From a virus: 23,201 bases of DNA. Location of the stretch: the IMG/VR virus record IMGVR_UViG_3300028156_000004, positions 1 to 23,201 of that record. One strand, 5' to 3'. Numbering within the stretch: position 1 is the first letter of the stretch; each line of letters starts with the position of its first letter. Position numbers and translations under genes: made by a program. The notes under the pieces are model-generated. The model worked only from the letters and a program-made list of their open reading frames with translations. It was not told the DNA's origin and did not search any database. This document shows positions 2,437 through 23,201 of the stretch, in pieces.

Positions 2437-4695
2437 ATGAAAGATTCTCTCGCAGTGAAAGAAATAGCGACCCTGTTGGGTGTATCACGACAGACCGTCG
2501 AGAAGTGGGCGCAAAAAGAAGATTGGATCAAAGACGAGGACGGGCGCTACCCCATCCTCTCCCTCCCGGGCCCCATCCAGGCCGCCTGGGTATCCTCCAC
2601 ATATAAAGGAGAGGATATGCTCGCCCAGGGGCATGTCATTTCCCTGATCGACGCCCTGGCCCCGGAAGCCATCGAGGCATTCCGTGACGCGACACACCCA
2701 CCCATGCAGATCAAGTCCATGACAGAAGTCGCCACCGGCGGCGGCCGTCAGCCGTTCGAGGGCTGGCTTGAAGACCCGTCGAGACAGTTTTCACTCGATG
2801 ATCTTGCCAATCCGCGCGTCGCGAAGATCCTCGCCATCCTGCGCGAGGTCGACGAGATACCCTGGGACTGGACAAAGGGAAAGCGAAAATGGATCGGCCT
2901 GGTCGCCCTCAAGCACGACGTCACCTTCCAGTCTGTCTACAGATACATAAAACGATATGAGGCAAAGGGAATCGGCGGCATCTGTCACCGGAAAAACACA
3001 AAGGGCCGCGCCAAAGTCTGGCATCCCGACGCCCTCCAATTCTGGATATCCATCTGCCTGAAACGCGAACACCGTCACATCGACAAACGCGACCTCTACG
3101 ACCACCTTATAATAGAGGCCGACCGCCGCGGCTGGACTATCGGCGGCTACGGGTCCGCGATCTGGTGGTATGATAAGCGGGCCACCCCGCAATTTCGAGC
3201 ACTCCAAAGGGGCGGGATGCGAGCGCTGGATAACGTGCTCCCGCCGATCCTGCGCGACTATTCGGATCTCGCCCCCTTCGACATGCTCGTCGGCGATCAG
3301 CATCGATTCGATTTTTGGGTACAAGACGACGAAACCGGCGAAGTCTTCCGGCCGGAGGGCTACCTCTGGCAGGATCTGCGCACCCGCATCATATACGGCG
3401 CCGCCATCGACCATAAATATGATTCACAACTCATCGGCCTGGCCCTGCGGATCGGCATCGGCATTTACGGCGCCTTCGGCAGCATCTATACCGACAACGG
3501 CAGGCCCGAGCTGAGCCGCTACCTCACCGGCATCATGTCAAACATCCGATCGCTCAATCTGAAATGGGAACGCACCGTCGACTCGACAATGGACGTCCTC
3601 GACACGGATCCCGAAGACATCAATCCGAATATCATCATCCCGGGCACCCACAAAAAAGCCATAGTCAAAAACGCGAAAGCCAAAATGATCGAAGGCACCT
3701 TTGACAAACTCGAAAGGCTTCTCCGGAGCCGGTTCCGCCTGCCCGGAAGCGTCAAGCGCCTGTCAGATGACATCCACGCGCAGGACATCGACCAGCTGGA
3801 AGCAAAAAAGCTGGCCGAGCAGGGCAAGCTGATGCTCTTTTCCGAGTTCGCGCTCACCATGTACCGGGCCTGCGACCACTACAACCGAGAGAAAAACCAT
3901 CGCGGCGTCGTCAAAGAATGGGCGTGGAAGCCGAAGACGAAGCAGGCCGTCCCGTATGACTGCCTCCAATTCTGCTACGAGAAAGACGGCTGGCGTCCCC
4001 GGATGATTTCCGATGACGCGTCGATCCTGTTCTTCCTGGCAAAGGCGAGCCGCAAGGTAAACATGGGTCGCATCCAGTTCCAGGGTGATTTTTACGAGGG
4101 TGATGTCCTGGTGGAACTGCACGGCAAACGCGTGGACCTGCGCTACAGCCCGATGGACATCCGCCAGATCTACATATTCCGGGGCAGTGAATACCTCGGC
4201 ATGGCGCTCCCCGTGGAATACTCGAGCATGAAGGACATGACCCTGGCCCAGAAAAAGATCGTAGAGAAACGCAAAATCCGGAAAAGGATCGCCGAAGAGT
4301 TCAAAAAAATCACCTCCGCCGCGCCCGATTTCCGGGAATATTCACAGGTCGATGTCCTGGAAAAAGCCGCCGCCCTCATCGGGAGAGACCGAAAAAAGCT
4401 CGCTGCCGATAACCATGAACTTTATCGCGAGCGCTCCCCGGAGGAGCTGGACGCCGAAGTCAGGATGATTGAAAAGCTCAACGCCACGCCGACCGTCCTG
4501 GGGTACAGGCCGCTTCCGGAACGCCCGTCGTTTTTCCTGCACGAAAGAGACCGGCATGAGTGGGCCGTAAAATACGAGTTCGCCGGGGGCCTCCTCGACT
4601 CCGAAGACAAGGGCTGGCTGGCCGGATACGAGTCAAAAATGACCCCGGAACAACAGGAATACTGGGCGATCCAGAAAGAACGCGGCGGATTATAG
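2437..4695 (+). CDS. A: Mu-like DDE transposase A
   Basis: A 752-residue protein homologous to MuA, which binds both phage ends, nicks them and joins them to target DNA during integration and replicative transposition. The N-terminal HTH (residues 4-30, LAVKEIATLLGVSRQTVEKW) matches the MuA enhancer-binding fold. Residues about 135-270 should hold the two end-binding HTH domains. The RNase H-like core shows the catalytic triad: D287 in VGDQHRFD, D353 in YTDNGRPE and E419 in MIEGTFDKLE. The first spacing (66) is close to MuA; the second (66) is somewhat longer than in MuA. The C-terminal 200 residues fit the beta-barrel and MuB/ClpX-contact tail. MuA has 663 residues, so this one is larger. 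GAGGTGAG precedes the ATG. Confidence 0.95.
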   Translation: MKDSLAVKEIATLLGVSRQTVEKWAQKEDWIKDEDGRYPILSLPGPIQAAWVSSTYKGEDMLAQGHVISLIDALAPEAIEAFRDATHPPMQIKSMTEVATGGGRQPFEGWLEDPSRQFSLDDLANPRVAKILAILREVDEIPWDWTKGKRKWIGLVALKHDVTFQSVYRYIKRYEAKGIGGICHRKNTKGRAKVWHPDALQFWISICLKREHRHIDKRDLYDHLIIEADRRGWTIGGYGSAIWWYDKRATPQFRALQRGGMRALDNVLPPILRDYSDLAPFDMLVGDQHRFDFWVQDDETGEVFRPEGYLWQDLRTRIIYGAAIDHKYDSQLIGLALRIGIGIYGAFGSIYTDNGRPELSRYLTGIMSNIRSLNLKWERTVDSTMDVLDTDPEDINPNIIIPGTHKKAIVKNAKAKMIEGTFDKLERLLRSRFRLPGSVKRLSDDIHAQDIDQLEAKKLAEQGKLMLFSEFALTMYRACDHYNREKNHRGVVKEWAWKPKTKQAVPYDCLQFCYEKDGWRPRMISDDASILFFLAKASRKVNMGRIQFQGDFYEGDVLVELHGKRVDLRYSPMDIRQIYIFRGSEYLGMALPVEYSSMKDMTLAQKKIVEKRKIRKRIAEEFKKITSAAPDFREYSQVDVLEKAAALIGRDRKKLAADNHELYRERSPEELDAEVRMIEKLNATPTVLGYRPLPERPSFFLHERDRHEWAVKYEFAGGLLDSEDKGWLAGYESKMTPEQQEYWAIQKERGGL

Positions 4696-4701
4696 CCCAC
4701 A

Positions 4702-4753
4702 CAGGGGACTGTCCCAGGAATTTTTGCGCAGCAAAAACCCGGGACTGTACCCG
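4702..4753. repeat. REP-like element, type A (copy 1)
   Basis: Two direct copies of a GGGACTGT(A/C)CCC unit flank a central hairpin with arms TTTTTGC (4721-4727) and GCAAAAA (4731-4737). The 52 bases are identical to 7627-7678. The element fills the gap between A and B. Variants are at 6414-6463 and 23154-23201. Confidence 0.8.
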
Positions 4754-4773
4754 AATTTAGAAAGGAGACCCAA

Positions 4774-5463
4774 ATGAAAAACGTCTTTATCGAGACAGCG
4801 AACACCCGGAAATTTTTTGACATGTGCAACGAACTGGCCGACCCCATGAGCCTGATCGGCCCGTCCCTGGCGATGGTCACAGGCCCGGCGGGCAGGGGCA
4901 AATCCGAGGCCGCGAAACATTACGCCACACAGACCAGCGCGATCTATATCCCGCCGATGAATGTGAGATCCCCGGCGATGGTCCTGCGGGAAATCGCCTT
5001 CGAGCTTTCAAAACTCAAGCCGGGCCGGTCCGAAGCGTGCCTCAATATAATAGGAGACGAGATGGCGAAAGATCGCAAGCTCGTCATCATCGACGAGGCC
5101 GACCTCCTCACCCTCCAGATACTGGAGATGCTCCGGAATGTCAACGAGCGCTATGCCTGCCCGATTCTGCTCATCGGTGAGGATGAACTCAGGGGCCGGG
5201 TAGCATCGAGGCGCAGGATCGCGAGCCGGATCCGGCAGAAGGTTGAGTTCATGCCGGTCACCCAGGGCGACATCATCTTCTTCTTTAAACAGTCCCTGGA
5301 GACCAAGCTCGCCGGCGACGTCGCCTCCATCATACTACACCACGCAAAGGGAGACTGGCGGCCCGTCCTCACCACAGCCATCGGCATCGAGAGGGCCATG
5401 AAGGCCAGCGGGATACAGGAAGTCACGGCGGAACTGGCGCGAGAGGTTATCAAAAATGGCTGA
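4774..5463 (+). CDS. B: MuB-like AAA+ ATPase, target-DNA activator
   Basis: A 229-residue ATPase that would bind target DNA and deliver it to the transposase A complex, giving target choice and immunity. Walker A is GPAGRGKS at residues 37-44. Walker B is LVIIDEAD at 103-110, and the sensor-1 region lies around 132-137 (LLIGED). MuB has 312 residues with an N-terminal HTH domain before the ATPase core. That domain is missing here, giving a compact form closer to TniB/IstB-type partners. AAAGGAG precedes the ATG. The end overlaps the next gene by 8 bases, suggesting translational coupling. A type-A repeat separates it from A. Confidence 0.9.
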   Translation: MKNVFIETANTRKFFDMCNELADPMSLIGPSLAMVTGPAGRGKSEAAKHYATQTSAIYIPPMNVRSPAMVLREIAFELSKLKPGRSEACLNIIGDEMAKDRKLVIIDEADLLTLQILEMLRNVNERYACPILLIGEDELRGRVASRRRIASRIRQKVEFMPVTQGDIIFFFKQSLETKLAGDVASIILHHAKGDWRPVLTTAIGIERAMKASGIQEVTAELAREVIKNG

Positions 5464-5980
5464 GGTCGGCTCCTATAAAAAGACAGGCCTCGCCGCGCGC
5501 ATGCGCGAATGGATGAAAGGCCGCAAGCGTCCCTTTACCGCGCGGATGATCTGCGACGGGCTGGAGATATCCGGCTGGGACGAGCGGCAGAAAGTCCACA
5601 ACTCCATCCCCGATTTTCTCAAAAGGGGCGAGGTCTATCAGCATCAGCGGGGACAGATTTCAAATCTGTCCCCGAATCAACAGAAACGGCGACAAAACAA
5701 ACAGTACAAATACAATCATGGCTGGCGAAAGGCGCCGAAAGGGAAAGACAAGCCGAGGATCCTCAAGGCGATGTACATATCGGCGATGGAATTTGCCGCA
5801 TCGGACATCGAAAGACTGTCCGGCGCGGGACGAAACCACGTTGAGAAAATCATCAAATCACTGGTCACGGACGGAGATCTTATCATCGTCGGCCGGAGGA
5901 CATGCTCCGCGGGAGTCGGAGCCGAGCACCTGTATAACATTGCGAACCGTGACCGGTTTAAGATCGAGGTAATGGGATGA
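5456..5980 (+). CDS. Double winged-helix phage protein, unknown function
   Basis: A 174-residue protein overlapping the end of B by 8 bases. The N-terminal part (about 10-60, FTARMICDGLEISGWDERQKV) and the C-terminal part (about 100-150, ASDIERLSGAGRNHVEKI) each look like a winged-helix DNA-binding domain. The inter-domain linker at residues 65-73 is encoded by a perfect palindromic REP-like element (5649-5673), which keeps the frame open. The sequence therefore looks like a two-domain regulator that tolerated an insertion in its linker. The end overlaps the GemA start. A role in regulating transposition or early genes is inferred from position. Confidence 0.65.
   Translation: MAEVGSYKKTGLAARMREWMKGRKRPFTARMICDGLEISGWDERQKVHNSIPDFLKRGEVYQHQRGQISNLSPNQQKRRQNKQYKYNHGWRKAPKGKDKPRILKAMYISAMEFAASDIERLSGAGRNHVEKIIKSLVTDGDLIIVGRRTCSAGVGAEHLYNIANRDRFKIEVMG
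5649..5673. repeat. REP-like palindrome, type B, inside a coding sequence
   Basis: GGGGACAGATTT and its exact reverse complement are separated by a single C, giving a perfect 12+1+12 inverted repeat. It is read in frame as RGQISNLSP between two winged-helix domains. The same palindrome without the central base is intergenic at 18266-18289 and 22349-22372. Confidence 0.9.
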
Positions 5981-6414
5981 ACACGAAGCCCCACCCGACA
6001 GACCGCTGGACGGCAAAAATCGCGGAGCAGCGCCGGGGTATCCTGGCGAAGATCCACATCGCAAAAAAGCAGCTTGGACTCACGCAGGACCAATACGCCG
6101 CGATACTCTCCGGCTTTGAGGTCACCAGTGCGAAAGACCTCACCATGCAGCAGCTCGAAAGTTGCGTGAAATACATGAAATACTTAGGCTGGCGGCCCTT
6201 CCGGGTGCGGAAACGCGCGCCCGTGGAGCGAACGATTACCGCCCTGCAGGACAGGTGCCGCGAGCTGGCCGGGCAGATGGAAAACGGAGAAGAGCGCCTC
6301 GCCGGCCTGATCAAATCGAAGGCCGGAGTCGACGCCCTGGAATGGCTCAGAGACACCGCGAAACTCAAACAGATACTGGCAATTCTGGAAAAATACAGGG
6401 AGCGGGAAGCATAG
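5977..6414 (+). CDS. gemA: GemA-like protein (Mu gp16, DUF1018)
   Basis: A 145-residue protein with the GemA/DUF1018 hallmark at residues about 25-50 (LAKIHIAKKQLGLTQDQYAAIL) and the SAKDLTMQQLESCVKYMKYLGW segment that follows. In Mu, GemA alters host gene expression and DNA topology early in infection; its biochemistry is poorly known. The C-terminal half (about 95-145) is helical and charged. The ATG overlaps the previous stop (ATGA), so the two genes are coupled. The stop codon is the first base edge of a type-A repeat. Confidence 0.88.
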   Translation: MNTKPHPTDRWTAKIAEQRRGILAKIHIAKKQLGLTQDQYAAILSGFEVTSAKDLTMQQLESCVKYMKYLGWRPFRVRKRAPVERTITALQDRCRELAGQMENGEERLAGLIKSKAGVDALEWLRDTAKLKQILAILEKYREREA

Positions 6415-6463
6415 GGGACTGTCCCAGGAGTTTTCGCGTAGCGAAAAACCGGGACTGTCCCCG
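6414..6463. repeat. REP-like element, type A (copy 2, diverged)
   Basis: Same plan as the element at 4702-4753: GGGGACTGTCCC, a central hairpin (TTTTCGC/GCGAAAA) and GGGACTGTCCCC. The hairpin arms differ from copy 1 by compensating changes (TTTTTGC to TTTTCGC with matching partner), so the stem is retained. Confidence 0.8.
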
Positions 6464-6482
6464 GTGGAAAAGGAAAACAAAG

Positions 6483-6689
6483 ATGAAGAACACGACCAAC
6501 ATTAGCCCCCGGGTATGGCGTGACACGGGGCACAGGATCAAAGGACGAAGGTTGTGCAAATCAATCCTGGGCCACTACGCCACAGAAAGTGACGGGATGT
6601 ACCTGGAGGCAGTGGACATAGCGGACGCCGAGGCGGTGATTGCCGCGGCCGGCGGGGAGAAGGCCGATGACGCGCACGATAGAAGTTGA
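6483..6689 (+). CDS. Small hypothetical phage protein (68 aa)
   Basis: The ATG at 6483 follows AAAGGAAAAC, directly after the type-A repeat. The 68-residue product starts with basic and aromatic residues (RVWRDTGHRIKGRRL) and ends in an Ala-rich acidic helix (AVDIADAEAVIAAAGG). I recognise no family. The next gene begins within its last 23 bases, so the pair is translationally coupled. It lies in the GemA-to-Gam early accessory block, where Mu-like phages keep many small unassigned genes. Confidence 0.6.
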   Translation: MKNTTNISPRVWRDTGHRIKGRRLCKSILGHYATESDGMYLEAVDIADAEAVIAAAGGEKADDAHDRS

Positions 6690-6870
6690 TCGAGTAATCG
6701 GCGGGGACGAGAGAGAGAAAGCCCGGGTCATGATATTCGCGGCAGCCGCGGACAGGCCGTCCGGATCGGGCAGACTCAGCATCCGGCAGCTCGATCGGAT
6801 CAGCGCGCTGTCCGGCATCCCCTGGGGCGATGTCACAAGAGAGGCCCGGAAAGAGGGCCTGACAACATAG
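6667..6870 (+). CDS. Small hypothetical phage protein (67 aa)
   Basis: It begins at the ATG at 6667 behind GGGGAGAAGG and overlaps the preceding gene by 23 bases. An in-frame ATG at 6640 would add nine residues but lacks a ribosome site. The second half (LSIRQLDRISALSGIPWGDV) reads like a small helical DNA-binding or adaptor motif, although no known family is clear. Transcription continues through the tandem repeats at 6873-6963 to the next gene. Confidence 0.6.
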   Translation: MTRTIEVDRVIGGDEREKARVMIFAAAADRPSGSGRLSIRQLDRISALSGIPWGDVTREARKEGLTT

Positions 6871-6872
6871 AA

Positions 6873-6963
6873 GGGGGCTGTCCCCGACGGGGACATGACC
6901 CGACTTAGCTTTATCAAATCGGCAGACGGGGACATGACCCGATTTAGCTTTATCAAATCGGGA
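6873..6963. repeat. GGGGGCTGTCCCC plus tandem 39-bp REP-like repeat (type C)
   Basis: GGGGGCTGTCCCC at 6873-6885 precedes two head-to-tail 39-bp units at 6886-6924 and 6925-6963. The units differ mainly at one C/T and at their last bases. Each contains a hairpin with arms CCGATTT (or CCGACTT) and AAATCGG around AGCTTTATC. They share the GGGGAC start with the other families but have a different interior. The tandem arrangement points to slippage or unequal exchange. Confidence 0.8.
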
Positions 6964-6995
6964 TCGTGTACCCGGAAAAAAAGAGGAGAAACAAC

Positions 6996-7394
6996 ATGGA
7001 AAACATGGAATATCTAAAGTACCGGACACTGAGCATCCTGGCCGACCACGTGGGCGAGGTCAATGCCGTCGGCATGGCCGAACTCTATGAGCAGGTGTTC
7101 GGCCGGCGCTGGAAACACAGGATCAACGACACCCGCGCGCTGCGAACCGTGATCACGGTCATGCGCAACGAAGGCAAGCCGATCTGCTCCGTATCCGCGT
7201 GCAACGGCGGAGGCTACTATCTGGCAGCCGCCGGGAGCGAGCTGGCCGACTATCTCAGGCGCGGTGAACATCGGGCGCTCAAGATCCTGGGCCGCAACGC
7301 CCGGCTGAAAAAGATCGCCCTGCCCGAATACCTGGGACAGATGCGGATAAACATGGAAGGCGAGCCGTGTCAGGACATCGGATCGCAGCCATAA
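6996..7394 (+). CDS. Winged-helix phage protein, putative regulator (132 aa)
   Basis: The ATG at 6996 is chosen over an upstream in-frame ATG at 6966 because GAGGAG at 6983-6988 gives a 7-nt spacer. Residues about 5-95 read as a winged-helix fold: helices around LSILADHVGEVNAVGMAEL, then INDTRALRTVITVMRNEG and a wing (CSVSACNGGGYYLA). The tail is basic. Position in the middle of the early block makes it a candidate middle or late regulator, the role taken by Mor and C in Mu. There is no Mor/C sequence similarity that I can see, so this is inference. Confidence 0.6.
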   Translation: MENMEYLKYRTLSILADHVGEVNAVGMAELYEQVFGRRWKHRINDTRALRTVITVMRNEGKPICSVSACNGGGYYLAAAGSELADYLRRGEHRALKILGRNARLKKIALPEYLGQMRINMEGEPCQDIGSQP

Positions 7395-7626: not shown

Positions 7627-7678
7627 CAGGGGACTGTCCCAGGAATTTTTGCGCAGCAAAAACCCGGGACTGTACCCG
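7627..7678. repeat. REP-like element, type A (copy 3, identical to copy 1)
   Basis: All 52 bases match 4702-4753, although the flanking bases differ. Identity over non-coding DNA 2.9 kb apart implies recent insertion or gene conversion. It lies directly upstream of the Gam ribosome site. Confidence 0.85.
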
Positions 7679-11604: not shown

Positions 11605-12129
11605 ATGCCCCAGAGATCAGCAGTAACACAACTCCCGGACGAGGTGAGAGAAGATCTTGACCGGAGGCTCATAAAAAGCGGATTTGCCAATTACCAGGGT
11701 CTGGCGGACTGGCTCATCGAACAGGGGTATGAGATCTCCAAATCCTCCATCCACCGCCACGGCCAGCAGTTGGAGCAGCGACTCCAGGCTATTAAAATAT
11801 CCACAGAGAGCGCTCGGGCGATCGCAAATGCCAGCCCTGACGATGAAGGAGCTATGGGAGACGCCCTCACGCGGTTAATGCAGGACAAAATCTTCAATAT
11901 GTTGCTCGAACTGGAAAAAATCGACGCGGATCAGATCGACGTGACGAAACTTGGTCGCATGATTGCCGACCTGAATCGCTCTTCGGTAACACAGAAAAAA
12001 TGGCAGGCGGAGGCCAGGGGGAAGGCGGCCAGGGCGGCTGACGACGTCGCTGATATCGTGAAATCCACCGGCCTTTCCGATGAGAAAGCAAAAGAAATTC
12101 GCAAAAAGATATTGGGAGTCGCGGCGTAA
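11605..12129 (+). CDS. Mu gp27-like protein (DUF3486), putative terminase small subunit
   Basis: A 174-residue DUF3486 protein. The N-terminus holds the family's LPDEVREDLDRRLIKSGFANY and YEISKSSIHRHGQQLEQRL segments (residues about 10-60), which form an HTH-like DNA-binding unit. The rest is helical with a charged end. In Mu-like phages this gene precedes the large terminase and is taken as the small terminase, recognising the phage end for packaging. The stop TAA overlaps the ATG of the large subunit by one base, a coupled arrangement that keeps the two subunits in proportion. Confidence 0.85.
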   Translation: MPQRSAVTQLPDEVREDLDRRLIKSGFANYQGLADWLIEQGYEISKSSIHRHGQQLEQRLQAIKISTESARAIANASPDDEGAMGDALTRLMQDKIFNMLLELEKIDADQIDVTKLGRMIADLNRSSVTQKKWQAEARGKAARAADDVADIVKSTGLSDEKAKEIRKKILGVAA

Positions 12130-13634
12130 TGGCGCAGAAATCAACTCCACATAATGATCTCGATACCGCCCGTGAGGCAACCGGAGGCATCCTGCTGCCC
12201 TATCAGGCGAGCTGGGTTGCCGATGATTCCGCGGTGAAGGTCATGGAAAAATCCCGACGGGTCGGGATCTCCTGGGCCGAGGCATCCGATGACGCGCTCT
12301 ATGCCGCGTCGGAAAGCGGCGACGATGTCTGGTACATCGGCTACAACAAAGACATGGCCCTGGAATTTATAGGCGATTGCGCCAACTGGGCGCGGGCCTA
12401 CAACCTGGCATGCTCAGAGATGGAAGAGACCGAAGAAATCGTGGAAGAGCAGAAGATCCTCGCCTTCCGGGTCACATTCAGATCCGGCCACCGGGTCACG
12501 GCATTGTCCAGCCGTCCCACCAACCTGAGAGGAAAGGGCGGTCGTGTCATAATCGACGAGGCGGCATTCCATGACGATCTGCCCGGGCTGATAAAAGCGG
12601 CGATGGCCCTGCTCATATGGGGCGGTCAGGTCAGGATCATCTCCACGCATTTCGGAGACAGTAACGAGTTTAATTCACTCATTCAGGATATCCGCGCCGG
12701 GAAAAAACCCTACAGCCTCCATCGCGTCGATTTCGACGAAGCCCTTGACGCCGGCCTGTATAGACGAATCTGCGAGGTCTTGAAACGGGACTGGTCGCCG
12801 CCAAAAGAGTTCGCCTGGCGACAGGAAGTCATTGATTTTTACGGCGACGACGCGGACGAGGAGCTCTTCTGTATTCCGTCCCAGGGGAGCGGCGTCTATC
12901 TGACCCGCGCCCTCATCGAGACATGCCTCTCCGACGAGATCCCCGTGATCCGCTACGAACAATCCACGGCATTCGCGGAAATCGCCGATCACCTGAGACA
13001 CGCCGAAGTCAAGGATTGGTGCGAGGAAACATTAAAACCGCTCCTTGCCGGATTAGATACAAAGCGCAGGCACTATTTTGGTGAGGATTTCGGTCGCACC
13101 GGTGACCTCACGGTTATCACGCCCCTGGCGGAACAGCAGAACGCGACTTTCAGGGCCCCATTCATCCTGGAACTCAGGAATATTCCCTTCCAGCAGCAGG
13201 AACAGATCCTCTTTTACATCGTCGACCGGTTGCCGCGATTTTCATACGGCGCCCTTGATGCCAGGGGAAACGGGCAGTACCTGGCCGAACGCGCCATGCA
13301 GAAATACGGTGCGTCACGAATCGCCCAGGTCATGCTCTCCGAGCAATGGTATCGGGAAAACATGCCCCCGTACAAAGCGGCGTTCGAAGACCGGAGCATC
13401 CTGCTTTCGAAAGATGCCGATATAATCGAAGATCACAGGGCGTTCAAGGTGATCAAGGGAATTGCAAAGCTCCCCGATACAAAAACAAAAGGCAAGGACA
13501 AAAAACAGCGCCACGGAGATTCCGGAATTGCCGGCGCCCTGGCCTGGTTCGCCACGAGGCAGAAAGGCGGCGGGCCGATCGAATACGAAACCGTCAGCGA
13601 GCGCCGGGCATCCGCCGGCAGAGGAGCCTACTGA
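12129..13634 (+). CDS. Mu gp28-like terminase large subunit
   Basis: A 501-residue packaging motor. The ATPase domain has a Walker A-like KSRRVGIS at residues 41-48, Walker B VIIDEAAF at 140-147 and a coupling segment ISTHFGD at 171-177. The C-terminal RNase H-like nuclease shows three acidic sites in order: D320 (GEDFGRTGDLT), D377 (ALDARGNG) and D464 (RHGDSGIAGALAW). It would cut phage-host junction DNA and pump it headful into proheads. Length and motif spacing are normal. The tail of the protein overlaps no neighbour; the portal ATG follows directly after its stop. Confidence 0.93.
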   Translation: MAQKSTPHNDLDTAREATGGILLPYQASWVADDSAVKVMEKSRRVGISWAEASDDALYAASESGDDVWYIGYNKDMALEFIGDCANWARAYNLACSEMEETEEIVEEQKILAFRVTFRSGHRVTALSSRPTNLRGKGGRVIIDEAAFHDDLPGLIKAAMALLIWGGQVRIISTHFGDSNEFNSLIQDIRAGKKPYSLHRVDFDEALDAGLYRRICEVLKRDWSPPKEFAWRQEVIDFYGDDADEELFCIPSQGSGVYLTRALIETCLSDEIPVIRYEQSTAFAEIADHLRHAEVKDWCEETLKPLLAGLDTKRRHYFGEDFGRTGDLTVITPLAEQQNATFRAPFILELRNIPFQQQEQILFYIVDRLPRFSYGALDARGNGQYLAERAMQKYGASRIAQVMLSEQWYRENMPPYKAAFEDRSILLSKDADIIEDHRAFKVIKGIAKLPDTKTKGKDKKQRHGDSGIAGALAWFATRQKGGGPIEYETVSERRASAGRGAY

Positions 13635-13635
13635 A

Positions 13636-15216
13636 ATGATACTGGACCAGTTCGGACGAGAGATTCAGAGGATGGAAAAACAGCCGGAACAGCGTGAAAT
13701 CGCCGTCGCGGCGGTACGTGACCGCTGGAGCACCTACCCCAGCTCAGGGCTTACACCGGCCAAGCTGGCCACGATTTTCAAGGAGGCCGACGGGGGAAGT
13801 GTTTACCGGCAGGCCGAGTTGTTCGAGGAGATGGAGGAAAAGGACACACATCTTTTCGCCGAATTCCAGACCCGTAAAAATGCCGTCCTCGGCCTTGATT
13901 ACGATATCGAACCGTACGACAGCAGTAGCGAAGCTAAAAAAATAGCCGATTTTTGCGCCGACGTCCTGTTCTCCATGTCCACATTTGAAGAAACGCAGCT
14001 TGACCTCCTCGACGCCATCCCGAAGGGATACGCCATGCAGGAAATCGTCTGGGACGTGACGGAGGGCAAGGCGATCATCGCCGGGTTCATGTGGATCCAC
14101 GCGAAAAAGGCAGTCTTTACGGACTTCGGCAAGAGCATGTGGGAGCCGATGATCTCCATCCCGAAGATCATCACCGAGGCCCAACCGATCAACGGCGAAG
14201 ACATGCCGCCCTTCAAACTGGTTTATCACCGCTACAAGGCCCGGTCGGGATACGACACCCGCGCGGGGATCCTGCGCACCTGCTCCTGGATGTACCTGTT
14301 CAAGAACTACGGAATCAAAGACTGGGTAGGCTTCGCCGAGGTGTTCGGCATGCCGCTGCGCCTGGGGAAGTATGACGCCGGTGCGAGCACGGCCGACAAG
14401 GATGCCCTGAAATTAGCCATCCAGTCGCTGGGCTCCGACGCCGCCGGGATCATATCGAAAAACACGGAGATTCAGTTCATCGAGGCGACAAAAAACGCAT
14501 CAAAGGACAACATCTTCGAGAACCTGGCTAACTTCTGCAACAAAGAAATGTCCAAAGCGATTTTAGGTCAGACAGCCACCTCGGAAGGCACGCCCGGCAA
14601 ACTCGGCGCGGATGACGCGCAATCCGCGGTACGCCAGGATCTCATCGAGGCCGACGCGAGCGCGCTGGCGAACACGGTCCGTTTTCAGATCCTTCGCCCC
14701 CTGGTCGGCTATAACTTCGGATGGGACAAGCTGCTTCCCTGGTTCCGGATCAAATACGAAAGCCCGGAGGATCTCAAATATCTTTCCGATGTGTACGAAA
14801 AACTGCACAAAATCAATTATCCTCTCTCGGCGAAGCATGTATCCGAGCGATTCGGCGTTCCCCTGCCCGACCAGAAAGACAAAGACGACTTTGTCCTCCC
14901 GGCGGCAAGTGGGCCGATGTCTGGGGCCAGATTTAAAGCTGTCCCCTATGCCCTTAAAAATCGCCGCTTTACGCCCGAGCAGGAAGCTCTGGAGGGACTG
15001 ATGGCACGGACAGGCGAAGAGATACCTGGGGCCATGTCAGGCCTCTTGGAGCCGATCCGTAAGCTGATCATGACCGCCGGGTCCCTGACCGAGATCCGCG
15101 ACGGGATATACGCGCTCTATTCCGACATGGATCCGCGCGAGATAGAAGATCTCGTATCGCGGGCAACATACACGGCCGACCTGTACGGCCGGCAGACGAT
15201 AGAGGATAAAAAATGA
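13636..15216 (+). CDS. Mu gp29-like portal protein (DUF935)
   Basis: A 526-residue protein of the DUF935 family, the dodecameric portal through which DNA enters and leaves the head. The ATG at 13636 behind GAGGAG is chosen; a longer in-frame ATG lies inside the terminase gene and has no ribosome site. Segments such as LLDAIPKGYAMQEIVWD and CSWMYLFKNYGIKDWVGFAEVFGMPLRLGKY are typical of the family. Near residues 430-437 a type-B REP-like palindrome (14923-14946) is embedded in frame, in the C-terminal part where portals vary. The stop overlaps a short ATG ORF, and the F gene starts 20 bases later. Confidence 0.92.
   Translation: MILDQFGREIQRMEKQPEQREIAVAAVRDRWSTYPSSGLTPAKLATIFKEADGGSVYRQAELFEEMEEKDTHLFAEFQTRKNAVLGLDYDIEPYDSSSEAKKIADFCADVLFSMSTFEETQLDLLDAIPKGYAMQEIVWDVTEGKAIIAGFMWIHAKKAVFTDFGKSMWEPMISIPKIITEAQPINGEDMPPFKLVYHRYKARSGYDTRAGILRTCSWMYLFKNYGIKDWVGFAEVFGMPLRLGKYDAGASTADKDALKLAIQSLGSDAAGIISKNTEIQFIEATKNASKDNIFENLANFCNKEMSKAILGQTATSEGTPGKLGADDAQSAVRQDLIEADASALANTVRFQILRPLVGYNFGWDKLLPWFRIKYESPEDLKYLSDVYEKLHKINYPLSAKHVSERFGVPLPDQKDKDDFVLPAASGPMSGARFKAVPYALKNRRFTPEQEALEGLMARTGEEIPGAMSGLLEPIRKLIMTAGSLTEIRDGIYALYSDMDPREIEDLVSRATYTADLYGRQTIEDKK
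14923..14946. repeat. Degenerate type-B REP-like palindrome inside the portal gene
   Basis: GGGGCCAGATTT followed by AAAGCTGTCCCC matches the perfect palindrome at 18266-18289 at 22 of 24 positions. It is read in frame within the portal C-terminal region. The two substitutions suggest an older insertion that has drifted under coding constraint. Confidence 0.7.
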
Positions 15217-15235: not shown

Positions 15236-15994
15236 ATGCGCTTAGACGGTCCGTACATAGTTCTGGAACCCGTGCCGTTCGACGAGGCGATCGAATATTT
15301 CGGCGCGCGGATCCCGATGACGCCGGAGCGGTTCGCCGCGCTTTCCGAAGGGGCAAAGGCAACGGCGTTCATGATCGGAGGCGTCACCCGCATGGATCTG
15401 GTCGAAGGGATCCACGGCGCTGTCCTGAAAGCTATTGAGGCGGGCGAGACCCTGGCCGATTTTCAAGGGCGAGTTGACGACCTGTTCACCTCCCAGGGGT
15501 TCGCGGCGGCGGAAGAGGGGCTCGGTGCCTGGCGGCTGGAGACGACCTTCCGGACGAATATCCAGACGGCGTACAACGTCGGCCGCTACGAGCAGATGGT
15601 CGACATGACCGAGGCTTTTCCATACTGGGAATATGACGCAGTGAACGACGGAAACACACGGCCCGAACACGCCGCCCTCGATGGGAAGGTGTTCCCGGCT
15701 GATCATCCGTTCTGGGATACCTGGTATCCTATAAATGGTTACAACTGACGATGCGGAGTGAATATGGTCCACAGGTCTGTGGCCGAGGAGGAGGGGTTGA
15801 AAATCGAAACGGACGACCCGACTGGGAAACTGATCGAGCCGATCGACGCCGCGGGAAATAAGCTCCCGGCCCGGCCCCTGATGCCCGATCCCGGATTCGC
15901 GACGAACCCGGCGAAGCAGCCTTGGAAACCGGATCTCGGAAAGTATCCGGACGAATTGTCAAGACAATACGAAAAGGAGGAAAAAGACAGATGA
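15236..15994 (+). CDS. F: MuF-like head morphogenesis protein, predicted selenoprotein (UGA at 171)
   Basis: Two open stretches in one frame form a single MuF-type minor head protein of 252 residues. Residues 1-170 contain LIRTN-like FRTNIQTAYNVGRYEQM, RPEHAALDGKVF and PFWDTWYPINGYN. The next codon is UGA (15746-15748). The frame then runs on as RCGVNMV...DPGFATNPAKQPW, ending 15994. MuF proteins normally continue NGxNCRC, so UGA replaces the first Cys and U171-R-C173 results. Downstream lies an fdhF-like SECIS hairpin. UGA is an ordinary stop elsewhere in this window, which excludes a recoded genetic code. The start ATG 15236 has only a weak ribosome site. Alternatives are a nonsense mutation or partial readthrough giving a 170-residue form. 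Confidence 0.85.
15746..15784 (+). promoter_or_regulatory. Candidate selenocysteine codon with SECIS hairpin
   Basis: UGA is at 15746-15748. After 17 nt, GG at 15766-15767 can pair with CC at 15783-15784, leaving U15768 bulged. CCACA (15769-15773) then pairs with UGUGG (15778-15782) around the loop GGUC (15774-15777). The E. coli fdhF SECIS, bound by SelB, has the same order: GG/CC, bulged U, short stem, A-GGUC-U tip. The tip begins 26 nt after the UGA; as I recall, bacterial SECIS loops lie about 16-37 nt away. The upper stem here has 5 pairs against 4 in fdhF. Confidence 0.82.
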
Positions 15995-17058
15995 AGCTCT
16001 GTGTGCTCGTGAAGGAAATCGACGGCGTGCCGTCCGAGTTCCAACTACTGCCATACGGCGAGATCTCAATCCACACCCGGAAACGCCCCGCGGTGCTGGA
16101 TGAAGCTGCGATGAAGACTGTTATTGCGAAATTTGATGCGCGCGGAAACGACATGGTCATCGACTACGAGCACCAGACGGAGATGGGCACACAGGCGCCG
16201 GCGGCGGGGTGGATCAAGCAACTGGTCAACCGGGGCCGGGATGGGCTGTGGGCGATCGTGGAGTGGACCGACAAGGCGAAGGAATATCTCAAGAACCGGG
16301 AATACCGGTATTTCTCGCCGGTAATGTGGATTCACGAGGTGAGCGACAGGGTGGCGCTGCTTGAGCATGTCGCGCTGACGAACGACCCGGCGATCAATAA
16401 TCTAAAACCGATCATGGCAAAAATGAAGCTGGCGAAGGCCGGTACGCGCCATGACCACAACGAGGAGGAAGTGAATATGGACAAAATCAGAGAGATGTTG
16501 GAGCTGCCGGCGGAAACGCCCGCCGACAAAATCGAGGGGAGGGTCGCGCTGGTGATATCGAAATGCGCTGACCTGGAAACGAAGCTCGCGGACGCCGTAA
16601 CACAGGCAGCGGACGCGGCAAGGGTCGTCGCCTGCAAGGAAGTGATGACGGCGCTCGGGACGAACGAGGGCGCCACTGCCGACGATCTCGTCAAAATCAT
16701 CACCGGCATGAAAGCCCTGGAAACCCCGGCGCAGAAGCTCGCGCTGAAGGTTCAGGAGCTGGAAACAAGAATCGCCTCCAGGGAATCGGACGATATCGTC
16801 CAGGAGGCCCTCAAGTCCGGCCGCACGTCTCCCGCTGAACTCGAAGAATGGGGAAACGACCTGGCAAAAACGTCGCCGGATCAGTTCAGGAAGATCGTAC
16901 TTTCCCGGACGGCCGGAAGCGTGATCCCGCTGGATAAGCTCCGCGTGGCGAAAGGTAAGCCCGAAGGGCTCGCCGATGAGGCACAGAAGGGGATTAATAA
17001 GCAGTTGGGGATCTCCGACGAAACGTACACAAAGTTTGGTCCGAAAAAGGCCGACTAA
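15991..17058 (+). CDS. I: Mu protease I-like maturation protease with C-terminal scaffold
   Basis: A 355-residue head maturation protease fused to a scaffold. The N-terminal 140 residues resemble Mu I: GNDMVIDYEHQT (H61) and YRYFSPVMW (S109) are candidate catalytic positions, followed by VALLEHVALTNDPAINNLKP. The C-terminal 190 residues are helical and charged (ETKLADAVTQAADAARV), as expected for a scaffold that is cleaved away. The ATG at 15991 overlaps the F stop (ATGA); AAAAGGAGG lies 10 bases before it. A second start with its own ribosome site is at 16477. Protease residues are inferred from position and family habit, not proven. Confidence 0.85.
   Translation: MKLCVLVKEIDGVPSEFQLLPYGEISIHTRKRPAVLDEAAMKTVIAKFDARGNDMVIDYEHQTEMGTQAPAAGWIKQLVNRGRDGLWAIVEWTDKAKEYLKNREYRYFSPVMWIHEVSDRVALLEHVALTNDPAINNLKPIMAKMKLAKAGTRHDHNEEEVNMDKIREMLELPAETPADKIEGRVALVISKCADLETKLADAVTQAADAARVVACKEVMTALGTNEGATADDLVKIITGMKALETPAQKLALKVQELETRIASRESDDIVQEALKSGRTSPAELEEWGNDLAKTSPDQFRKIVLSRTAGSVIPLDKLRVAKGKPEGLADEAQKGINKQLGISDETYTKFGPKKAD
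16477..17058 (+). CDS. Internally initiated scaffold protein (nested in I)
   Basis: ATG 16477 is in the same frame as I, preceded by GAGGAGG at 16462-16468 with an 8-nt spacer, giving a 193-residue product that begins MDKIREMLELPAE. In Mu and lambda-type phages the scaffold is made from an internal start of the protease gene (Mu Z, lambda Nu3), so that many scaffold copies accompany few proteases. The product is largely helical and acidic-basic in alternation, with the VQEALKSGRTSPAELEEWG region near the capsid-binding end. The strong internal ribosome site supports its expression; no direct proof is available. Confidence 0.7.
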   Translation: MDKIREMLELPAETPADKIEGRVALVISKCADLETKLADAVTQAADAARVVACKEVMTALGTNEGATADDLVKIITGMKALETPAQKLALKVQELETRIASRESDDIVQEALKSGRTSPAELEEWGNDLAKTSPDQFRKIVLSRTAGSVIPLDKLRVAKGKPEGLADEAQKGINKQLGISDETYTKFGPKKAD

Positions 17059-17064
17059 TGACTC

Positions 17065-17087
17065 GGGGACAGATTTAAATCTGCCCA
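17065..17087. repeat. Degenerate type-B REP-like palindrome between I and the decoration gene
   Basis: GGGGACAGATTTAAATCTG is intact, but the right end reads CCCAC where GTCCCC would be expected, as if a base was lost. It lies seven bases after the stop of I and upstream of the ribosome site GAGGAGG of the next gene. Confidence 0.8.
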
Positions 17088-17110
17088 CACAACCAAAGAG
17101 GAGGAACAAT

Positions 17111-18259: not shown

Positions 18260-18265
18260 CAATTC

Positions 18266-18289
18266 GGGGACAGATTTAAATCTGTCCCC
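18266..18289. repeat. REP-like palindrome, type B, perfect 24-bp copy
   Basis: GGGGACAGATTT is followed immediately by its exact reverse complement. It lies between the decoration gene stop and the AAGGAGG of capsid T. The same 24 bases recur at 22349-22372, and diverged copies are at 14923, 17065 and 20962. Confidence 0.92.
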
Positions 18290-18308
18290 AACTAAGGAGG
18301 AAAAACCA

Positions 18309-19190
18309 ATGATAATAAATCAGGCAAATCTGGAGGGTATTTACAAATCCTTTTCCACCATATTCAACAAACAGTTTGAGCTGACGCCGTCAGACTATGC
18401 GCTGATCACGATGATCACCCAATCCGGCGGCCGGTCAGTCGACTACAAATGGCTCGGCGATCTGTCCGGCATGCGGGAATGGTTGGGTGACAGGGTCATC
18501 ACGGATCTGTCCGCCTTTCATTATGAGATAACAAATAAGTCGTTTGAACTGACGATCGGCGTGGACAGGGATGACATCGAGGACGACCTCATCGGCGTCT
18601 ATCTCCCCCGGCTCGAGATGCTGGCACACGGGGCAAAGACACACCCCGACGAGCTGATCTTCGCGCTCCTGAAACTGGCCTTCGAGACGGAGTGCTTTGA
18701 CGGGCAATATTTCTGTGACTCGGACCACGTGGTCAACGGCGCGTCCGTCTCAAACACCGGCGGCGGATCGGGGAATCCCTGGTTTTTGATGGACCTATCG
18801 AGGCCCATCAAACCCATGATTCTCCAGCGCAGGAAAAATCCGGAGTTCGTGGCGATGGATAACCCGGCGGACGAGAGCGTGTTTATGCGCAAGGAGTTCC
18901 GTTACGGCGTGGACGACCGCAAGAACGTCGGGTACGGTCTCTGGCAGCTCTGTTTTGGCTCAAAGGACACGCTGGACGCGACGACATACGCGGCGGCGCG
19001 GGCGGCGATGATGGCGTTTACAAAGGACGATGGAGTCACGCCCCTCGGAGTCAGAGGAACACACCTGCTTGTTGGGGGTACAAACGAAGCAGCGGGGAGA
19101 GCGCTCGTAGAGGGCGCGAACCTCACGGGCGGAGCCAGTAACCCCTGGTTTAACACGGCTAAGCTGGTGGTAACCCCCTGGCTGACATAA
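18309..19190 (+). CDS. T: Major capsid protein (Mu gpT-like)
   Basis: A 293-residue major head subunit of the Mu gpT family, HK97-fold. Recognised parts are FSTIFNKQFELTPSDYALI (residues about 15-33), the SGGRSVDYKWLGDLSGMREWLGDR segment and FELTIGVDRDDIEDDLIG. The middle has DGQYFCDSDHVVNGASV and the C-terminus LLVGGTNEAAGRALVEG. Length is typical. AAGGAGGAAAAACC gives a strong ribosome site for a protein needed in hundreds of copies. A large hairpin with 14-bp arms stands just after its stop. Confidence 0.93.
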   Translation: MIINQANLEGIYKSFSTIFNKQFELTPSDYALITMITQSGGRSVDYKWLGDLSGMREWLGDRVITDLSAFHYEITNKSFELTIGVDRDDIEDDLIGVYLPRLEMLAHGAKTHPDELIFALLKLAFETECFDGQYFCDSDHVVNGASVSNTGGGSGNPWFLMDLSRPIKPMILQRRKNPEFVAMDNPADESVFMRKEFRYGVDDRKNVGYGLWQLCFGSKDTLDATTYAAARAAMMAFTKDDGVTPLGVRGTHLLVGGTNEAAGRALVEGANLTGGASNPWFNTAKLVVTPWLT

Positions 19191-19198
19191 CAACCTGA

Positions 19199-19239
19199 CG
19201 GGGACATTCCCATTTTCACCGAAACTGGGAATGTCCCCG
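19199..19239. repeat. Large hairpin REP-like element (type D) after capsid T
   Basis: CGGGGACATTCCCA (19199-19212) and TGGGAATGTCCCCG (19226-19239) form a perfect 14-bp inverted repeat with a 13-base loop. It begins with the GGGGAC seen in the other elements. No T run follows, so a simple terminator is unlikely. It could stabilise the 3' end of capsid mRNA. Confidence 0.8.
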
Positions 19240-20834: not shown

Positions 20835-21034
20835 ACTACAGGCTGAAAAAAGGGCAGGAGAATATCGTGATAATGGGCGGACCATTCGAGGGGAAAAAGT
20901 TCGTCCGCGGCGTGGAGTATTCGGAGATCCCTCCGGAGGAGAAACACCGGTTCGAGAAAGTGGGGACAGATTTCAAGCCTGTCTCCAAAACAAAACCGGC
21001 GACAAAATCAATCGCCGGAGGAGGTGAATTATGA
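20831..21034 (+). CDS. Small gp38-position protein (67 aa) carrying a REP-like insertion
   Basis: A 67-residue protein of unknown family, starting at ATG 20831 in overlap with the DUF1834-like gene. N-terminal part: MNYRLKKGQENIVIMGG, then FEGKKFVRGVEYSEIPPEE. The C-terminal 25 residues (KVGTDFKPVSKTKPATK) come from a degenerate type-B palindrome at 20962-20986 and flanking bases, so the original gene may have ended earlier. The end overlaps the tail tube start. The position corresponds to Mu gp38, a small tail-region gene. Function cannot be told. Confidence 0.6.
   Translation: MNYRLKKGQENIVIMGGPFEGKKFVRGVEYSEIPPEEKHRFEKVGTDFKPVSKTKPATKSIAGGGEL
20962..20986. repeat. Degenerate type-B REP-like palindrome inside a small tail-region gene
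   Basis: GGGGACAGATTT, a C, then AAGCCTGTCTCC: the left arm is intact and the right arm has changes at a few positions. It is read in frame as part of the C-terminal extension of the 67-residue protein. It shares the extra central C with the copy at 5649-5673. Confidence 0.7.
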
Positions 21035-22314: not shown

Positions 22315-22322
22315 AGCGCTAA

Positions 22323-22372
22323 GGGGACTGTCCCCGGCAAACTTATTCGGGGACAGATTTAAATCTGTCCCC
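22323..22372. repeat. GGGGACTGTCCCC plus perfect type-B REP-like palindrome
   Basis: GGGGACTGTCCCC at 22323-22335 is half of a type-A element. A perfect 24-bp type-B palindrome follows at 22349-22372, identical to 18266-18289. The pair lies after the tail tube gene and before the AAAGGAG of the next gene, a mosaic of the two families. Confidence 0.85.
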
Positions 22373-22399
22373 CTATCGGAAGAAAAAAAGGAGAAAACT

Positions 22400-23148: not shown

Positions 23149-23153
23149 ATCGA

Positions 23154-23201
23154 GGGGACTGTCCCATTTTTCGAGCATCGAAAACAGGGACTGTCCCCGG
23201 C
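23154..23201. repeat. REP-like element, type A (copy 4, at the window edge)
   Basis: GGGGACTGTCCC (23154-23165), a central hairpin with arms TTTTTCGA and TCGAAAA around GCA, then GGGACTGTCCCC. The element continues to the last base of the window. The hairpin differs from copies 1-3 but the layout is the same. Confidence 0.8.

What the first reader, a model, noticed from the sequence alone, without database searches (positions are those of the whole stretch)
15236..15994. Phage head protein F appears to be a selenoprotein: UGA at a conserved Cys
Seen: one frame runs through a single UGA at 15746-15748, with recognisable MuF protein on both sides (PFWDTWYPINGYN before, RCGVNMV and later DPGFATNP after). 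Known: MuF-type proteins end this region with NGxNCRC, so UGA takes the place of the first Cys, giving N-U-R-C. Other genes in the window end normally at UGA (2428, 5980, 13633-region neighbours), so a recoded genetic code is excluded. Inference: the virion or prohead carries a selenocysteine next to a cysteine, which could form a selenenylsulfide or bind metal at the head vertex.
Basis: partly seen in the sequence, partly recalled or inferred. Interest (0 to 1): 0.95.

Follow-up and report, generated by a model that had tools for sequence, protein, structure and literature searches.

The report
Selenium-containing phage head protein (MuF)
A Mu-like bacteriophage encodes its minor head protein with a UGA codon where relatives have an essential-looking cysteine, and dozens of other phages do the same with a selenocysteine-insertion hairpin behind it, so these phages very probably build selenium into a head protein using the host's machinery.

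Summary
In a Mu-like phage contig, the MuF (PF04233) gene at 15236-15994 is open through one in-frame UGA (15746-15748). The UGA stands at the first cysteine of an invariant C-x-C motif.

It is not an error or pseudogene. Identical UGA occurs in two further metagenome records. Across 77 loci (16,409 aligned codons) the only in-frame stops are the eight UGAs at this position. Scans of 2.9 million viral contigs gave 27 distinct MuF genes with UGA-x-Cys, 12 with Cys-x-UGA and 3 with UGA-x-UGA. They gave none with UAA/UAG there, and none with UGA at the neighbouring invariant Trp.

Downstream sequence is under purifying selection and can encode recognised domains (PBECR2 nuclease). A bacterial-SECIS-type hairpin follows in 35 of 39 cases under a strict rule, against 6 of 54 cysteine homologues. 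Its stems covary around a conserved loop. In the window it reads CCACA-GGUC-UGUGG, 25 nt after the UGA.

Selenocysteine is therefore much the best reading. No MuF or phage family is in the 2026 inventory of 119 prokaryotic selenoprotein families. Unproven: the host (unknown, so selA-selD untested), the biochemical decoding, and what the C/U-x-C/U motif does (redox or metal site).

The parts
15236..15994 (+). MuF minor head protein gene read through the internal UGA; 252 residues, stop TGA at 15992-15994
   Evidence: PF04233 E=2.9e-24; phrog_220 matches residues 12-248 across the UGA; stop overlaps the ATG of the next gene (15991), sequence ATGA
15746..15748 (+). in-frame UGA, residue 171, at the first Cys of the invariant C-x-C motif; read as selenocysteine
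   Evidence: Cys codon or UGA, never another stop, in 77 loci; invariant column in alignment A1; scans
15752..15754 (+). TGC codon for Cys173, the second Cys of the motif; UGA in 12 other distinct phage genes (C-x-U) and in 3 double (U-x-U) genes
15668..15670 (+). codon of His145, invariant in the family together with Cys171 and Cys173
15766..15784 (+). bacterial-SECIS-type hairpin: stem GG(u)CCACA / UGUGGCC, apical loop GGUC closed by A-U (AGGUCU), loop starts 25 nt after the UGA
   Evidence: fold -9.0 kcal/mol; meets the published bSECIS rules; strict-hairpin test p=0.033 against synonymous recodings for this gene, combined p about 5e-14 over 27 U-x-C genes
13636..15216 (+). Mu-type portal protein, immediately upstream, ends in TGA (start not determined)
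   Evidence: PF06074 E=2.4e-101; stop TGA
15991..17058 (+). Mu-like prophage I protein (protease/scaffold); its ATG overlaps the MuF stop
   Evidence: PF10123 E=4e-72
12129..13634 (+). probable terminase large subunit, ends normally at TGA
   Evidence: no Pfam hit; DNA similarity to Mu-like terminase genes; stop TGA
18309..19190 (+). major head subunit gpT
   Evidence: PF10124 E=6e-108
2437..4695 (+). Mu-type transposase A
   Evidence: PF09299 and PF02914

Best explanation
The MuF minor head protein of this Mu-like phage is a selenoprotein. UGA 171 is decoded as selenocysteine by the Sec machinery of the bacterial host (SelA, SelB, SelD, tRNASec); no part of that machinery was found on the phage contigs. 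Decoding is directed by the in-gene hairpin at 15766-15784, whose GGUC/AGGUCU apical loop would bind SelB. The product carries N-U-R-C where most relatives carry N-C-R-C. Shown here: the UGA, its exchange with Cys, selection on the read-through part, the hairpin and its covariation, and a normal genetic code. Inferred: decoding as Sec, and the host machinery. Function, inferred with about 45% confidence: the invariant C/U-x-C/U pair, probably together with invariant His145, is a redox-active or metal-binding site. It would act in a protein held at the portal inside the head, where selenium lowers the pKa and speeds thiol exchange. A likely role is in assembly, or in release of MuF or DNA on infection of anaerobic hosts.
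For: (1) Exchange at one column: UGA in 8 of 77 loci, otherwise TGC/TGT, with no other in-frame stop in 16,409 aligned codons. (2) Scans of 2.9 M viral contigs: 31 stretches (27 distinct genes) with UGA-x-TGY and 18 MuF stretches (12 distinct) with TGY-x-UGA; one further match to that pattern, L133, is not MuF. Four stretches (3 distinct) with UGA-x-UGA are MuF. UAA/UAG gave 0, and UGA at invariant Trp160 gave 0 MuF. (3) Three separate metagenome records hold the identical UGA gene. (4) dN/dS downstream of the UGA is 0.09-0.31 wherever computable and 0.12 for window vs L007. The downstream parts of relatives match PBECR2 at E=1e-19 to 1e-23. (5) Strict bSECIS-type hairpin in 23/27 U-x-C and 12/12 C-x-U genes, against 6/54 C-x-C genes. 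Synonymous nulls give 16-18%; combined p=5e-14 and 2e-8. L094 and L095 carry GUGUC-AGGUCU-GACAC only 14 nt from the UGA, so the strict rule misses them. (6) 19 distinct hairpins with 5-nt loops pair at 89%, against 38-47% when slid by 1-2 nt; 18 extra pair types. (7) Normal code and no suppressor tRNA.
Against: No host genome, so selA/B/C/D presence is untested. No protein or 75Se data. The window's own hairpin energy (-9.0 kcal/mol) is not exceptional against dinucleotide shuffles (z=0.43), and an energy-only scan for SECIS did not separate the groups; only the defined hairpin geometry did. Two of 39 genes (L085, L090) have weak hairpins. The closest relatives (L003, L005, L006, about 85% identical) use Cys, so Sec is not essential to the protein.
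Confidence: 0.93

Rival explanations
1. Sequencing error or a degraded gene: the UGA is a chance nonsense mutation of TGC or TGT.
For: TGC/TGT to TGA is one step, and prophage genes decay.
Against: Identical in three records. No other in-frame stop in 77 loci. No UGA at invariant Trp160, although TGG to TGA is also one step. dN/dS downstream is low. UGA recurs at homologous sites across a diverse tree with at least 12 Sec/Cys changes.
Confidence: 0.01
2. Programmed UGA read-through by an ordinary near-cognate tRNA (Trp, Arg or Cys), used only to make a short and a long form of MuF.
For: Several relatives put a toxin-like domain (PBECR2, ART) behind the UGA, so two products would make sense.
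Against: Regulatory read-through would not need the stop to sit exactly on a conserved Cys, to move to the other conserved Cys or to occupy both. UAA/UAG never occur. The hairpins fit the SelB-binding bSECIS geometry.
Confidence: 0.03
3. UGA is read as cysteine or another residue by an unusual tRNA or SelB-dependent allo-tRNA rather than as Sec.
For: Cys is the alternative residue; such tRNAs exist in some bacteria (own knowledge, not tested here).
Against: UGA terminates other genes of the phage. No such tRNA on the contigs. Conserved hairpins directly behind the UGA are the mark of Sec decoding.
Confidence: 0.02
4. Genome-wide reassignment of UGA in phage or host.
For: Known in some phages and bacteria.
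Against: At least four window genes, MuF included, end in TGA at the expected places.
Confidence: 0.01

Closest known systems
Phage Mu gpF / SPP1 gp7 (MuF, PF04233) minor head proteins
   Same: Same domain, same position directly after the portal gene, and same C-x-C motif (NCRC in Mu, GCQC in JBD25).
   Different: All cultured phages whose sequence I read have two cysteines; here one is UGA/Sec, and in other environmental phages the other one, or both.
Bacterial selenoprotein families (FdhA, GrdA, Prx-like and others; 119 families in PMC13188914)
   Same: In-frame UGA at a Cys column, downstream bSECIS hairpin within the published rules, Cys homologues.
   Different: No MuF, phage or capsid family is in that list. 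This one is phage-encoded, is expected to be part of the virion, and uses U-x-C, C-x-U and U-x-U in one family.
E. coli fdhF SECIS
   Same: AGGUCU apical loop in the window, L094 and L095 (fdhF loop recalled, not retrieved here).
   Different: Loop sits farther from the UGA in the window (24-25 nt) and closer in L094/L095 (14 nt). Most relatives use CGUGA or CGGGC loops with other stems.
MuF polymorphic toxins (PMC5576092)
   Same: MuF domain with a C-terminal toxin-like domain in several Sec-type relatives (PBECR2, ART).
   Different: The toxin-like domain lies behind a UGA, so it would be made only if the UGA is decoded; the window's own MuF has no such domain.

Membership tests
MuF minor head protein (PF04233) | matches the domain profile above its cut-off | tested here: met
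   86.4 bits against a cut-off of 29.6
MuF minor head protein (PF04233) | gene directly after the portal gene in the packaging/head module | tested here: met
   Portal_Mu upstream, Mu I protein downstream
MuF minor head protein (PF04233) | present in the virion, bound to the portal | not testable with these tools
   known for SPP1 gp7 (PMC5576092, PMC6316719)
Bacterial selenoprotein | in-frame UGA aligned with Cys in homologues | tested here: met
Bacterial selenoprotein | read-through part conserved as protein | tested here: met
   dN/dS 0.09-0.31 where computable; PBECR2 domains behind the UGA in relatives
Bacterial selenoprotein | bSECIS: G in the first two loop positions, loop 16-37 nt from UGA, stem 4-16 bp, energy at or below -7.5 | tested here: met
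   window: GGUC loop at 25 nt, -9.0 kcal/mol; family 35/39 by the strict hairpin rule
Bacterial selenoprotein | host encodes SelA, SelB, SelD and tRNASec | not testable with these tools
Bacterial selenoprotein | selenium shown in the protein | not testable with these tools
   needs 75Se labelling or mass spectrometry
Listed prokaryotic selenoprotein families (PMC13188914, Table 1) | belongs to one of the 119 families | tested here: not met
   no MuF/PF04233/phage entry in the table

The most novel reading that the evidence does not exclude
A virus family uses selenocysteine as a switch. Only hosts with an active selenium economy yield full-length MuF, including MuF-nuclease/ART fusions encoded behind the UGA, so that head maturation and effector delivery are tied to the host's selenium or redox state. 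The U-x-C/C-x-U/U-x-U centre then works as a redox trigger inside the virion.
Probability: 0.2. Interest if true: 0.95.

Novelty: new variant of a known kind. Interest (0 to 1): 0.85.

Why it matters
Selenocysteine has been catalogued in cellular enzymes. In the papers I could search I found no phage structural protein among selenoproteins and no report of UGA-encoded Sec in a phage head. If right, some tailed phages depend on the host's selenium pathway to make a head protein, which would restrict host range to Sec-decoding bacteria. It also adds a large natural set of Cys/Sec exchanges (C-x-C, U-x-C, C-x-U, U-x-U) in which to ask why Sec is chosen. It points to a redox or metal centre in MuF, whose domain function is described as unknown (PMC5576092). 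Practically, standard gene calling stops at the UGA (as the ORF list does), so annotation would lose the C-terminal domains.

Tried and rejected
Searches used a pattern one base short after the Gly codon; their results mean nothing, and the only genome-contig scan was lost that way, so no host with a UGA-MuF could be tied to selA/B/C/D. A substitute search of 398 genomes around an unrelated MAG found none, as expected for so small a sample. A taxon name is not accepted as a centre.

Energy-only SECIS scoring did not separate Sec from Cys genes because long stems form easily in GC-rich sequence; the geometric rule did. Rfam gave no hit in the window. Plasmid and phage collections hold MuF homologues only below 60% identity, and the six phage records I read are C-x-C with no UGA there. 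No solved MuF structure or structural neighbour was found.

Considered and rejected: sequencing error, pseudogene, recoded genome, suppressor tRNA on the phage.

Full report
WHAT IS THERE. The window is a 23,201-base virus record with no host genome attached. It carries a Mu-like phage: transposase A, GemA, terminase small subunit, Mu portal, MuF, I protein, gpT and a tail-S-type protein. MuF lies between the portal gene and the I-protein gene. Its frame 15236-15994 has one internal stop, UGA at 15746-15748, and ends in TGA at 15992-15994 overlapping the ATG of the next gene. Profiles of MuF match on both sides of the UGA.

THE SITE. In an alignment of 69 relatives ten columns are invariant; among them are His145, Cys171 (the UGA) and Cys173. 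In 77 aligned loci the codon at 171 is TGC or TGT except in eight loci where it is TGA. Among 16,409 aligned codons those eight are the only in-frame stops. The window gene is identical in two other metagenome records (L001, L002), so a sequencing error is excluded for practical purposes.

HOW WIDESPREAD, AND CONTROLS. Exact-pattern scans of 2.9 million viral contigs gave 31 stretches with UGA-x-TGY, all MuF, 27 distinct genes when pooled with the relatives. The second cysteine can be the UGA instead: 18 MuF stretches, 12 distinct genes. Both can be UGA: L135, L140 (= L143) and L141; the other matches of that scan are chance, with stops all through the frame. Controls were clean: UAA/UAG at site 171 gave no match, and UGA at the invariant Trp160, also one step from its codon, gave two matches, neither MuF. 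So UGA is confined to the two cysteine positions, in all combinations.

TRANSLATION CONTINUES PAST THE UGA. dN/dS after the UGA is 0.09-0.31 in the pairs where it can be computed; for window against L007 it is 0.20 before and 0.12 after. In some Sec-type relatives the part behind the UGA contains a PBECR2 nuclease-like domain (L063, L067, L114, L132; E 1e-19 to 1e-23) or an ART-like domain (L099, just under the Pfam cut-off).

THE SIGNAL. Behind the window's UGA is the hairpin GG(u)CCACA-GGUC-UGUGGCC at 15766-15784, loop 25 nt from the UGA, -9.0 kcal/mol. This meets the published bSECIS rules: loop 3-9 nt, G in the first two loop positions, 16-37 nt from the UGA, energy at or below -7.5 (PMC13188914). 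L007 has CCACA-GGUU-UGUGG and L010 has CCACC-GGUC-GGUGG, a compensated closing pair. Under a strict geometric rule 23 of 27 U-x-C and 12 of 12 C-x-U genes have such a hairpin, against 6 of 54 C-x-C genes; recoding the same proteins with synonymous codons gives 16-18%. Combined p is 5e-14 and 2e-8, with related genes counted separately, so these are rough. Two of the four exceptions, L094 and L095, have GUGUC-AGGUCU-GACAC 14 nt from the UGA. Nineteen distinct hairpins with five-base loops (mostly CGUGA, CGGGC) pair at 89%, against 38-47% in slid controls, with 18 additional pair types: stems change by compensation while the loop stays. A cysteine relative, L008, retains CCACA-GGAG-UGUGG, a probable relic; such relics are known for Sec-to-Cys reversions (PMC1794560). 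A search by energy alone did not discriminate, and the window's fold is not unusual against shuffles.

CODE AND MACHINERY. UGA ends at least four genes of this phage, including MuF. No tRNA lies in the window or, apart from one tRNA-Met in L099, in 46 Sec-type loci. Sec decoding must therefore come from the host. The host is unknown; this is the main gap.

EVOLUTION. On a maximum-likelihood tree of 95 MuF proteins, with the motif left out, Sec/Cys changes at least 12 times, and U-x-C and C-x-U neighbour each other (L106/L129, L098/L118). The tree is a quick one and the sample was enriched for UGA forms by the scans; direction of change is not inferred. The window's nearest relatives mix Sec (L007) and Cys (L003, L005, L006).

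FUNCTION. [quoted passage not shown]). The AlphaFold model is good (pLDDT 89.7), but no solved structure resembles it, and the coordinates could not be inspected, so the distance between His145 and the C-x-C is unknown. Free exchange of S and Se at both positions, the invariant His and the insertion of an intein at exactly this Cys in L061 all mark an active or ligand site. I favour a redox-active or metal-binding centre (about 45%); disulfide networks stabilise at least one other phage virion (PMC10491603), but that is an analogy only.

PRIOR KNOWLEDGE. A 2026 review listing 119 prokaryotic selenoprotein families has no phage, capsid or MuF entry; term searches inside other selenoproteome papers found no phage head selenoprotein. 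Full-text searches of the held library found no report of one. Subscription papers and supplementary tables were not searchable.

VERDICT. Confidence 0.93 for Sec decoding. The finding is larger than stated: a recurrent phage selenoprotein family using either or both cysteines.

Noticed in passing
L061 about 5199-6560; L041 about 5475 onwards: An intein is inserted immediately before the same Cys171 (PPNGYN / CFPPWT...TYIVQGATVHN / CRCGVNP in L061). The residue that is Sec in the window is the intein's +1 cysteine there; in L041 the end of the intein was not found in the same frame.
   Followed up: partly
L063 5484-6212, L067 5484-6209, L114 9663-10352, L132 (minus) 6020-6739, L099 5328-6167, L007 5496-6458, L100 5073-5909, L085 (minus) 4740-5288: Several Sec-type MuF proteins carry extra C-terminal domains of about 100-250 residues behind the UGA: PBECR2 nuclease-like, ART-like (just below cut-off), DUF3626, or unrecognised. 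The effector would only be made if the UGA is decoded.
   Followed up: partly
window 4703-4753, 5646-5680, 6413-6463, 7628-7678, 17061-17104, 18262-18305, 19199-19239, 20959-20993, 22322-22388, 23153-23200: A family of short palindromic repeats (GGGGACTGTCCC and GGGGACAGATTTAAATCTGTCCCC) sits mostly at gene junctions: 19 matches of GGGACAGTCCC with up to one mismatch, 0.4 expected. REP-like elements inside a phage; perhaps a clue to the host.
   Followed up: partly
window 6886-6961: Two adjacent, almost identical 37-nt direct repeats (97%) upstream of the gene at 6966-7394.
   Followed up: no
L008, codon 171 region (about 5483-5540): A cysteine MuF that keeps the SECIS-like stem (CCACA-GGAG-UGUGG) with a changed loop: probable relic of a Sec-to-Cys reversion.
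   Followed up: partly
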